From: Amycolatopsis deserti
GTDB taxonomy: Bacteria; Actinomycetota; Actinomycetes; Mycobacteriales; Pseudonocardiaceae
Reading direction: 5' to 3'
DNA: 64,000 bases
NCBI RefSeq assembly: GCF_014653945.1
Contig: NZ_BNAU01000009.1
Coordinates: 124,001-188,000 of the forward strand
Positions 38,006-40,017 of this stretch are shown here, in pieces. Each line of letters opens with the position of its first letter. The first letter of the stretch is position 1. Made by a program: the position numbers and the translations under genes. The notes under the pieces are model-generated. The model worked only from the letters and a program-made list of their open reading frames with translations. It was not told where the DNA came from and made no database searches.

Positions 38006-39370
38006 TCACGGTAGCGGGCGGACGACCTTGCCGGGGTTGAGAATTCCCAGCGGGTCGAACGCCTGCTTGACCGCTTGGTGGACGGACACGCCCACCTCGC
38101 CCAGCTCCCTCTCCAGCCAGTCCCGTTTCAGCATGCCCACGCCGTGCTCGCCGGTGATCGTGCCGCCCAGCCGGAGACCGAGCGCCATGATCGCGTCGAA
38201 CGCGGCCTGCCCACGTCGCACCGAGTCGGGGTCCGCGGCGTCGAAGACCACGTTCGGGTGCATGTTGCCATCGCCCGCGTGCCCGCACGTCGGGATCAGC
38301 ACGTCGTGCTCGCGGGAGATGGCGGTGACTCCTTCGAAGAACTCCGCCAGCCGTGAACGAGGCACGCACACGTCGTCGACGAGCCGGTCGCCGAGCTGCT
38401 CCATCGCGACCCCGGCCAGCCGTCGCGCCGCGATGAGCAGGTCCGCTTCGGCGCGGTCGCTCGCCACGAGCACTTCGGTCGCCCCGCAGGACCGCGCGAC
38501 CTCCGCGAACGCCTCGAGGTCGTGCGGCGCCGCGGGCCCGCGATCGGACTGGGCGATCAACACGGCCTCGACGTCGTCCGGGAAACCCAGGTCCCGGTAC
38601 GCCGCGACCGCGTCGATCGTGGGCTTGTCCATCAACTCGAGCACCGACGGACGCTGCCCGCTGCTCAGGTACTCCGTGACCGTCCGACACGCCGCCGGCG
38701 GCGCCGCGAAAAACGCGACCGCCGTCAACGGCGCCTCCGCCACCGGCCGCAGCGCCACGGTCACCTCGGTGATCACCCCGAGCGTTCCCTCCGAGCCGGT
38801 GAACAGCCGCACCAGGTCGTACCCGGCCACGCCCTTGGCGGTGCGGCGGCCAGTCCGCAACACCCGCCCGTCGGCGAGCACCACTTCCAGTTCACGGACG
38901 AAGTCGCTGGTGACGCCGTACTTCACGCAGCACAGCCCACCGGCGTTGGTGGCTACGTTGCCACCGATCGTCGACGACTCCCAGGAGCCGGGGTCGGGCG
39001 GGTAGAACAGGCCCTTGTCCTCGACCGCGTGGGACAGGACCGCGTTCACGACCCCCGGCTGCACAGTTGCCGTGTGGTTGATTTCGTCGATGTCCAGGAT
39101 GCGGGTCATCCGCTCCAGCGAGAGCAGGATCGCCCCGTCGACCGCGTTCGCTCCACCTGACAGTCCCGTCCGGGCACCCTGTGGGACGACAGGGATCCGG
39201 TGCCGGGAAGCGACACGCAGAATTCTTACGACCTCTTCGGTCTCGGTCGGCCGCGCCAGTGCCACCGGCACGCCGGCGGTGCCGAAACCGGCTTGGTCGA
39301 ATCGGTAACCGGACAGCACGTCCGGGTCGGTCGTGACGAAATCAGCCTCGAGCTCGGCGATGAGTCCCAC
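38006..39370 (-). CDS. FAD-linked oxidase, GlcD/D-lactate dehydrogenase type
   Basis: A 454-residue VAO-family flavoprotein. The FAD-binding motif PVVPQGARTGLSGGANAVDG is near residue 60, with SSTIGGNVATNAGG and SEGTLGVITEVTVAL further on. The C-terminal cap has CGHAGDGNMHPN, which supplies metal and substrate ligands. Such enzymes oxidise 2-hydroxy acids (glycolate, D-lactate, D-2-hydroxyglutarate). GTG 39368-39370 is supported by TACGGT (39377-39382) 6 bases upstream. It is first in an operon with a class III aminotransferase: together they could convert a hydroxy acid to a keto acid and then to an amino acid, or the reverse. Confidence 0.92.
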   Translation of the reverse strand: MGLIAELEADFVTTDPDVLSGYRFDQAGFGTAGVPVALARPTETEEVVRILRVASRHRIPVVPQGARTGLSGGANAVDGAILLSLERMTRILDIDEINHTATVQPGVVNAVLSHAVEDKGLFYPPDPGSWESSTIGGNVATNAGGLCCVKYGVTSDFVRELEVVLADGRVLRTGRRTAKGVAGYDLVRLFTGSEGTLGVITEVTVALRPVAEAPLTAVAFFAAPPAACRTVTEYLSSGQRPSVLELMDKPTIDAVAAYRDLGFPDDVEAVLIAQSDRGPAAPHDLEAFAEVARSCGATEVLVASDRAEADLLIAARRLAGVAMEQLGDRLVDDVCVPRSRLAEFFEGVTAISREHDVLIPTCGHAGDGNMHPNVVFDAADPDSVRRGQAAFDAIMALGLRLGGTITGEHGVGMLKRDWLERELGEVGVSVHQAVKQAFDPLGILNPGKVVRPLP

Positions 39371-39410
39371 GAACTCACCGTATCGGGCGAAGGTCGGCGA
39401 GAGAACCGGG

Positions 39411-39448
39411 TGATGCCCGGGCGCTCGCCCGTGTGCATCCGGGCATCA
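39411..39448 (-). terminator. Terminator hairpin after hsp20
   Basis: Perfect 10-bp stem TGATGCCCGG / CCGGGCATCA with an 18-base GC-rich loop, 18 bases beyond the hsp20 stop and before the FAD-oxidase promoter. Confidence 0.75.
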
Positions 39449-39466
39449 CCCCCTTCTGGAGTGGTT

Positions 39467-39904
39467 TCAGGCGGTGATCTCCTTGCGGTTCTCACCACTC
39501 TCGATAGCGATCTTGCGCGGCTTGGCGGCTTCGGCGACCGGGATCCTCAACGTCAGCACCCCGGCCTCGTAGCTCGCCTTGATGTTGTCGGTGTCGAGCG
39601 TGTCGCCCAGGAAGAGCTGCCGGGAGAACACCCCGAGCGGCCGCTCGGCCACCTGCATCTCGACGTTGTCACCGGTGGCGGAGGGGCGCCGCTCCGCCTT
39701 GACGGTCAGTACGTTGCGTTCGACGTCCAGGTCGATCGCGTCCGGTTCCACACCGGGCAGGTCGAACACGACGACGAACTCGTCACCCGCGCGATAAGCG
39801 TCCATCGGCATCACCGCGGGGCGCGACCACGTTCCGGGCCCCTGGCCGAACACCTGCTGGGTCAGGCGGTCCAGTTCACGGAAGGGATCGGTGCGCATCA
39901 ACAT
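39467..39904 (-). CDS. Hsp20/alpha-crystallin small heat-shock protein
   Basis: A 145-residue Hsp18/Hsp20 chaperone that holds unfolding proteins in the cytoplasm. The alpha-crystallin domain spans about residues 35-130: [48 protein letters not shown] and [14 protein letters not shown]. The short N-terminus [20 protein letters not shown] is the actinobacterial Hsp18 type. ATG 39902-39904 follows AGGAGG. A good promoter (TTGTCA-17-TATAAC) gives a leader of about 49 bases. The divergent gene encodes a probable regulator, and a perfect dyad lies between them. Confidence 0.93.
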
Positions 39905-39959
39905 CTGGTCACACCTCCTCTGGTCTCCATCACCTGGGACGTTGACGTCGCACACCACA

Positions 39960-40017
39960 GTTATAGCGCGTCGTCGTTCCGTTGACAAGTCCTGATGTCA
40001 TCGGCATGATGACATTG
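39960..40017. promoter_or_regulatory. Overlapping divergent promoters and 8-bp dyad (hsp20 / regulator)
   Basis: Minus strand: TTGTCA (39983-39988), 17-base spacer, TATAAC (39960-39965), driving hsp20. Plus strand: TTGACA (39982-39987), 17-base spacer, CATGAT (40005-40010), 6 bases before GTG 40017. The two -35 boxes are the same bases on opposite strands. A perfect inverted repeat ATGTCATC-N5-GATGACAT (39995-40015) covers the plus-strand -10 and lies just upstream of the hsp20 -35, well placed for repression of both genes. Confidence 0.75.

What the first reader, a model, noticed from the sequence alone, without database searches (positions are those of the whole stretch)
39960..40017. Divergent hsp20 and regulator promoters share the -35 bases and are covered by a perfect 8-bp dyad
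TTGTCA-17-TATAAC (hsp20) and TTGACA-17-CATGAT (regulator) use the same -35 bases on opposite strands. ATGTCATC-N5-GATGACAT overlaps the regulator -10 and abuts the hsp20 -35. No HAIR or CIRCE heat-shock element is seen. The adjacent HTH protein is the natural repressor, which would make a two-gene heat-shock module separate from HspR and HrcA.
Basis: partly seen in the sequence, partly recalled or inferred. Interest (0 to 1): 0.72.

Follow-up and report, generated by a model that had tools for sequence, protein, structure and literature searches.

The report
RheA-type heat-shock repressor and operators
A small heat-shock gene and its neighbouring repressor in an Amycolatopsis-like bacterium share a DNA switch of a kind already known from Streptomyces (RheA/HSP18), and comparison with relatives suggests that the switch has two repressor sites, not one, and that the start of the heat-shock message can pair with its own start codon.

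Summary
In detail: promoters, shared -35 bases and dyad are where stated. [quoted passage not shown] The operator core occurs exactly once in the 7.74 Mb genome, beside its only detected Hsp20 gene; all 33 loci fetched by operator sequence carry both genes. The window's second, degenerate copy (39970-39986) lies in the hsp20 promoter. Unexpected extra: the 5' end of the predicted hsp20 mRNA can pair with its start codon region (complete 11-nt match in 68 of 100 distinct loci, 0 of 100 with the start region read backwards), and codon 2 is the rare TTG in 95 of 106. This suggests a translational layer. A 1996 paper title already names post-transcriptional regulation of hsp18; its text was not available.

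The parts
39467..39904 (-). hsp20 (HSP18-like small heat-shock protein), 145 aa, ATG at 39904-39902, Shine-Dalgarno AGGAGG at 39919-39914
   Evidence: Pfam HSP20 3.4e-20; the only HSP20 match found in the genome
40017..40622 (+). RheA-type repressor, 201 aa, GTG start; HTH-like helices at residues 62-69 and 74-89
   Evidence: 51% identity over 182 aa to a protein annotated 'HSP18 transcriptional regulator'; all-helical model, pLDDT 85.1, pTM 0.50
39995..40015 (.). operator O2: perfect 8-bp dyad over the rheA -10 and predicted start site
   Evidence: a site at the matching place scores 8-12 of 12 arm bases in 109 distinct divergent loci
   Evidence: O1 scores 10-12 of 12 in all 109 loci
39983..39988 (-). 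hsp20 -35, TTGTCA (overlaps the right arm of O1)
   Evidence: TTGTCA in 102 of 109 loci
39960..39965 (-). hsp20 -10, TATAAC
   Evidence: TANNNN at 17 bp in 104 of 109 loci
39982..39987 (+). rheA -35, TTGACA (also overlaps the O1 right arm)
   Evidence: TTGACA in 21 of 109 loci, ATGACA in 80
40005..40010 (+). rheA -10, CATGAT (O2 spacer and right arm)
39938..39953 (-). 5' end of the predicted hsp20 mRNA, anti-start element GUGCGACGUCAACGUC
   Evidence: pairs with 39905-39891 in the minimum-energy fold; start site inferred from the -10, not mapped
39891..39905 (-). partner strand of the helix: start codon region GAUGUUGAUGCGCAC
39402..39457 (-). 19-nt inverted repeat (89%) between hsp20 and the downstream FAD-linked oxidase gene, possible transcript end

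Best explanation
This is a RheA/HSP18 heat-shock module. At normal temperature a RheA-type repressor, presumably as dimers, binds two neighbouring inverted-repeat operators: O1 (39970-39986) inside the hsp20 core promoter and O2 (39995-40015) over the -10 and start site of its own gene. It thereby shuts off hsp20 and limits itself. On heating, the repressor changes shape and leaves, and RNA polymerase can use the -35 bases that both promoters share. Shown here: the anatomy, the conservation of both operators, the operator being tied to this gene pair, and protein homology to annotated HSP18 regulators. Inferred from Streptomyces RheA: binding, repression and temperature sensing. A second layer is proposed (about 0.45; not part of the confidence below): the first nucleotides of the hsp20 mRNA pair with the start codon region and hold back translation until the helix opens or is bypassed. 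Shown: conserved complementarity. Inferred: any effect on translation.
For: Divergent hsp20/rheA neighbours and 51% identity to an annotated 'HSP18 transcriptional regulator'. PMC11754652, passages and section 22: RheA's region covers the rheA -10 and start site, hsp18 is divergent, a gel shift is reported. The best pair of operator-like sites in each of 109 distinct loci lies 26 (66), 27 (36), 28 (6) or 29 (1) bp apart with 20-24 of 24 arm bases (spacings 25-30 allowed). Without that limit, two sites of at least 10/12 in 104 of 109, mean 0.0 in shuffles. Searching by the operator alone found it in 4 of 19 genomes of the window's genus and 60 of 121 of the genus of G075 (a genome already known to carry the gene), reversed-pattern control 0; 33 of 33 loci fetched from these carry both genes (some are also among the 109). 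In L019 and L038, where hsp20 is not divergent, an operator pair sits in front of hsp20. Helix: 68 of 100 fully paired, controls 0 of 100 and 1 of 100; 18 of 22 in leaders not used before, control 0 of 22; co-loss with the TTG codon.
Against: No binding or heat data for this organism. Window O1 is only a 10/12 match, so repression of hsp20 here may rest mainly on O2 or be weaker. The module is patchy: strong matches to the repressor in 13 of 19 genomes of the genus and 22 of 61 genomes searched, 29 of 393 in the class sample. Of 18 non-divergent rheA-like loci, 4 (L109, partly masked; L113, L143, L147) show no operator pair. For the helix: one two-sided pair change in 42 aligned sequences and none in the 8 pairs of RNAalifold; shuffling partners among rows barely changes the result (94.6% against 94.4%) because the gene side hardly varies; energy shuffles reach p <= 0.05 in only 63 of 101; the modelled start codon of the window clade hardly opens between 20 and 70 C (mean unpaired 0.14 to 0.20). 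The hsp20 transcription start is predicted, not mapped.
Confidence: 0.92

Rival explanations
1. Only O2 is a real site: the protein represses itself, and hsp20 is controlled by something else or by steric spill-over from O2.
For: Window O1 has only 10 of 12 arm bases while O2 is perfect; O2 is the better site in 24 of 109 loci.
Against: O1 is the better site in 49 of 109 loci and equal in 36, and in L019 and L038 the operators stay with hsp20 away from a divergent rheA start.
Confidence: 0.07
2. hsp20 is under HspR, HrcA or a general sigma factor and the dyad serves another, non-heat purpose.
For: HrcA and CIRCE sites exist elsewhere in the genome.
Against: No CIRCE or HAIR match here; the exact operator was found beside the rheA-hsp20 pair in 33 of 33 fetched loci.
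Confidence: 0.03
3. The conserved 5' leader element is not an RNA pairing element but a DNA site, for example a third half-operator or an initial-transcription signal.
For: In many Pseudonocardiales it contains GTTGACA, close to an operator half-site.
Against: In many Streptomyces loci it is GCGCATTGGCA, in Kibdelosporangium it contains GTGCGTRACAAC and in the window clade GTGCGACGTCAAC, different sequences that can all pair with the start. Reading the start region backwards or reversing the leader removes the match. Of 122 distinct loci all 108 with the rare TTG codon keep the pairing, and the 6 without pairing all lack TTG.
Confidence: 0.2
4. The leader-start helix is real but works as an mRNA stabiliser or constant translation damper, not a heat switch.
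For: Predicted opening is small in the window clade.
Against: Other hand-picked groups soften more (Streptomyces group, start unpaired 0.33 to 0.71 from 20 to 70 C), and hsp18 is reported as post-transcriptionally regulated (title of Servant and Mazodier 1996, seen in a reference list).
Confidence: 0.35

Closest known systems
RheA/rheO/hsp18 of Streptomyces albus and S. albidoflavus
   Same: Divergent small heat-shock gene and repressor, binding region over the rheA -10 and start site, homology to annotated HSP18 regulators; operator core TGTCATC-N5-GATGACA (published sequence recalled, seen in no paper here)
   Different: Amycolatopsis-like host; hsp20-side operator degenerate and rheA-side operator perfect; consensus TTGACA for rheA shared with the hsp20 -35; protein 51% identical to the Streptomyces member compared
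HspR/HAIR and HrcA/CIRCE heat-shock control
   Same: Repressor-based heat-shock control in actinobacteria (PMC2687793 passage)
   Different: Neither element was found here; the repressor matches no Pfam family above its cut-off
RNA thermometers of small heat-shock genes (ROSE, fourU, Synechocystis hsp17; recalled)
   Same: 5' leader pairs with the translation start of an sHSP mRNA
   Different: The 5' end of the transcript pairs with the start codon and next codons and leaves the Shine-Dalgarno in the loop; Rfam gave one chance-level hit elsewhere in the stretch

Membership tests
RheA/hsp18 module | repressor gene divergent from an Hsp20-family gene | tested here: met
RheA/hsp18 module | repressor homologous to RheA / 'HSP18 transcriptional regulator' | tested here: met
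   51% over 182 aa to L145. Compared with an annotated Streptomyces protein, not with the S. albus or S. albidoflavus RheA sequence itself
RheA/hsp18 module | operator over the rheA -10 and start site | tested here: met
   start site predicted, not mapped
RheA/hsp18 module | repressor binds the operator and represses hsp18 and itself | not testable with these tools
   needs gel shift, footprint or deletion
RheA/hsp18 module | DNA binding reversibly lost on heating | not testable with these tools
   reported for S. albus RheA according to PMC11754652
HspR/HAIR | HAIR inverted repeat at the promoter | tested here: not met
   6 genome sites with 2 mismatches, control 12, none here
HrcA/CIRCE | CIRCE inverted repeat at the promoter | tested here: not met
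   6 genome sites with up to 3 mismatches, control 0, none here
RNA thermometer | conserved pairing of the leader with the translation start | tested here: met
   94.6% of cells paired against 19.0-48.5% in slid versions, but 94.4% in row shuffles, which cannot discriminate here; directional controls
RNA thermometer | helix opens over the physiological temperature range | tested here: inconclusive
   model: window clade hardly opens, Streptomyces group opens partly
RNA thermometer | temperature-dependent translation | not testable with these tools
   needs a reporter

The most novel reading that the evidence does not exclude
hsp20/hsp18 of RheA-bearing actinobacteria is controlled twice by heat. 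A protein thermometer (RheA) releases two tandem operators whose spacing is tied to the sigma-70 promoter spacing, and an undescribed family of RNA thermometers, in which the very 5' end of the mRNA pairs with the start codon and the next codons, gates translation and keeps a rare TTG leucine codon at position 2.
Probability: 0.45. Interest if true: 0.66.

Novelty: new member of a known kind. Interest (0 to 1): 0.45.

Why it matters
In the passages read here RheA is treated in Streptomyces only; the loci found extend the module to Amycolatopsis, other Pseudonocardiales, Kribbella and a Catenulispora MAG and suggest that the tandem operator is the rule. The conserved leader-start helix offers a concrete, testable mechanism for the post-transcriptional control of hsp18 named in a 1996 title. 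It also matters for users of RheA-based temperature switches, because a native hsp18 leader may carry its own control.

Tried and rejected
Pfam and NCBIfam give no family for the repressor above cut-off. Foldseek against PDB found nothing with E <= 0.001. A profile search of PDB sequences gave, under E 0.001, only a short match to RelI (3.5e-4, profile positions 28-72). Rfam gave one chance-level hit (E 4.8). The RheA papers of 1999 and 2000, the 2001 review and the 1996 hsp18 paper are not held, so whether they describe tandem operators or a leader helix could not be checked. Opened: PMC11754652 (abstract, section 22, passages) and passages only of PMC2687793, PMC9696931, PMC6032397, PMC10434288, PMC3890552 and PMC8079986; the rest were seen as listings.

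Rows dropped: one search left out 11 of 148 loci with repressor scores under 70 bits or no match (L002-L004, L027-L034). Of the 137 kept, 18 had no divergent hsp20 and 10 were duplicates, leaving 109. Of those 109, 3 (L015, L022, L130) had no start matching the pattern used and were left out of the leader tests (106 left; 101 or 100 after removing identical ones). In one search one of 32 loci (L191) gave no leader, and 9 of the 31 found were already in the first set. Less favourable tests: energy shuffles reach p <= 0.05 in 63 of 101; whole-leader folding against mononucleotide shuffles gives z below -2 in only 17 of 109; row shuffles do not discriminate. The shuffles were mononucleotide, and its register was chosen for best pairing in data and shuffles alike. 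One search printed its list of variants wrongly; that list is not used.

Full report
The observation. The sequence at 39960-40017 is as described: a - strand promoter TTGTCA-17-TATAAC for hsp20, a + strand promoter TTGACA-17-CATGAT for the 201-aa protein, -35 boxes sharing five bases, and a perfect 8-bp dyad ATGTCATC-N5-GATGACAT at 39995-40015. The core TGTCATC-N5-GATGACA occurs once in the window (0.12 expected with up to two mismatches) and once exactly in the 7.74 Mb genome. The seven other genome sites, all with two mismatches, are inside reading frames of 100 aa or more, which were not shown to be genes. The dyad starts 6 bp beyond the hsp20 -35, so it does not abut it.

What it is. The window is from an Amycolatopsis-like genome: the closest named protein is 98% identical, from A. 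thermalba. The - strand gene is the only HSP20-family match in the genome. The + strand protein has no Pfam or NCBIfam family above cut-off. Of the 30 plasmid records listed of 44 with a match, 7 annotate the relative as 'HSP18 transcriptional regulator', 16 as 'type III effector protein', 3 as hypothetical and 4 give nothing. In L145 the first kind lies divergent from an Hsp20 gene and is 51% identical over 182 aa. PMC11754652 (abstract, section 22 and passages read) describes this layout for RheA/hsp18 of Streptomyces: divergent genes, RheA binding over the -10 and start site of rheA, operator rheO in the intergenic region, reversible loss of binding with heat. I recall the published operator as TGTCATC-N5-GATGACA (Servant et al. 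1999), but that paper was not held. The window protein was not compared with the S. albus or S. albidoflavus RheA sequence itself.

Spread. The gene is patchy: strong matches in 13 of 19 genomes of the genus and 22 of 61 genomes searched in all, and in 29 of 393 genomes of the class sample.

Two operators, not one. Of 137 rheA-like loci, 119 have a divergent hsp20 and 109 of these are distinct. In each of the 109 the best pair of sites lies 26 (66 loci), 27 (36), 28 (6) or 29 (1) bp apart, with 20-24 of 24 arm bases matching (spacings of 25-30 were allowed). Without any spacing limit, 104 of 109 hold two sites of at least 10/12, against a mean of 0.0 in dinucleotide shuffles. The hsp20-side site scores 10-12 in all 109, the rheA-side site 8-12; the former is better in 49, equal in 36, worse in 24. 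In the window it is worse: GTCGTC-GTTCC-GTTGAC, 39970-39986. Its right arm overlaps the -35 of both promoters. The hsp20 -35 is TTGTCA in 102 of 109 loci and its -10 is TANNNN at 17 bp in 104. The consensus rheA -35 TTGACA appears in 21 of 109, and 20 of those 21 have the 27-bp operator spacing, which gives a 17-bp promoter spacer. I infer that operator and promoter spacing are tied, and that the window clade traded operator symmetry in O1 for a better shared -35.

Specificity. Searching genomes by the operator sequence alone gave exact hits in 4 of 19 genomes of the window's genus (its own included) and 60 of 121 of the genus of G075, a genome already known to carry the gene, with none for the reversed pattern. 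All 33 loci fetched, out of a larger number of places, hold both a rheA-like gene and hsp20. Of the 18 rheA-like loci without a divergent hsp20, 12 keep an operator pair, 2 (L073, L082) are cut by a contig end and show one site, and 4 (L109, partly masked; L113, L143, L147) have none. In L019 and L038 the pair precedes a co-oriented hsp20. No CIRCE or HAIR match is near, although the genome has HrcA.

How it works. Most likely RheA binds O1 and O2 at normal temperature, blocks both promoters, and leaves on heating. Anatomy and conservation are shown; binding, repression and temperature sensing are inferred from Streptomyces. The model of the protein is all helical with an HTH-like pair at residues 62-69 and 74-89 (pLDDT 85.1, pTM 0.50).

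A second layer. Folding the predicted hsp20 leader showed its 5' end pairing with the start region: in the window GUGCGACGUCAACGUC with GAUGUUGAUGCGCAC (-29.8 kcal/mol, z -2.1). Across 100 distinct leader/start pairs, an ungapped 11-nt leader stretch pairs fully (G-U allowed) with the start region in 68 and at 9 or more positions in 97; mononucleotide-shuffled leaders average 7.95. Controls: start region read backwards 0 of 100 full, leader reversed 1 of 100, downstream windows 0 of 1060. In leaders not used before, 18 of 22 pair fully, control 0 of 22. On a sequence-only alignment of 42 hand-picked loci RNAalifold finds an 8-pair version of the helix by itself, with no two-sided change; for the 11-pair version 94.6% of cells pair against 19.0-48.5% when slid. 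Codon 2 is TTG in 95 of 106 genes, while TTG is 25 of 1149 leucine codons from codon 5 on. Of 122 distinct loci, all 108 with TTG keep the pairing (9 or more of 11), and the 6 without pairing all lack TTG (Fisher 7e-7, not corrected for kinship).

Limits of the second layer. The gene side hardly varies, so two-sided changes are rare (one cell) and row shuffles do not discriminate (94.4%). Energy shuffles are moderate (63 of 101 at p <= 0.05), although the start region binds the leader better than the next stretch of the gene in 96 of 101. The start site is not mapped. The window clade's start codon is predicted to stay mostly paired even at 70 C, so there it may be a damper, or opened by ribosomes or other factors. 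The title of Servant and Mazodier 1996 names post-transcriptional regulation of hsp18 (reference list); I could not see whether they proposed this helix.

Verdict. The general tandem operator and the leader-start helix were not seen described in the ten paper searches made (last), whose library lacks the original RheA papers.

Noticed in passing
window 39402-39457: 19-nt imperfect inverted repeat between hsp20 and the downstream FAD-linked oxidase gene (38006-39370), possibly ending the hsp20 transcript.
   Followed up: partly
L041 about 784-2414: In Prauserella cavernicola the operator pair is kept but no hsp20 was detected, and a frame that looks like an FAD-linked oxidase (domain not searched there) lies beside it; L018, L056, L058, L059, L069, L086, L097, L116 and L123 also keep the operators without a detected hsp20.
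   Followed up: partly
G000, G013, G012 and others: Short frames, several of about 72 aa, match the helix-turn-helix-like part of RheA weakly; a PDB profile hit to RelI may cover the same stretch.
   Followed up: no
hsp20 leaders, 31 of 109 loci: The leader holds a GGCAG-loop-CTGCC hairpin that could compete with the leader-start helix.
   Followed up: no
L103: A record titled Rhodococcus rhodnii carries a leader and operators very like those of Kibdelosporangium (L106, L107); possibly mislabelled or contaminated.
   Followed up: no
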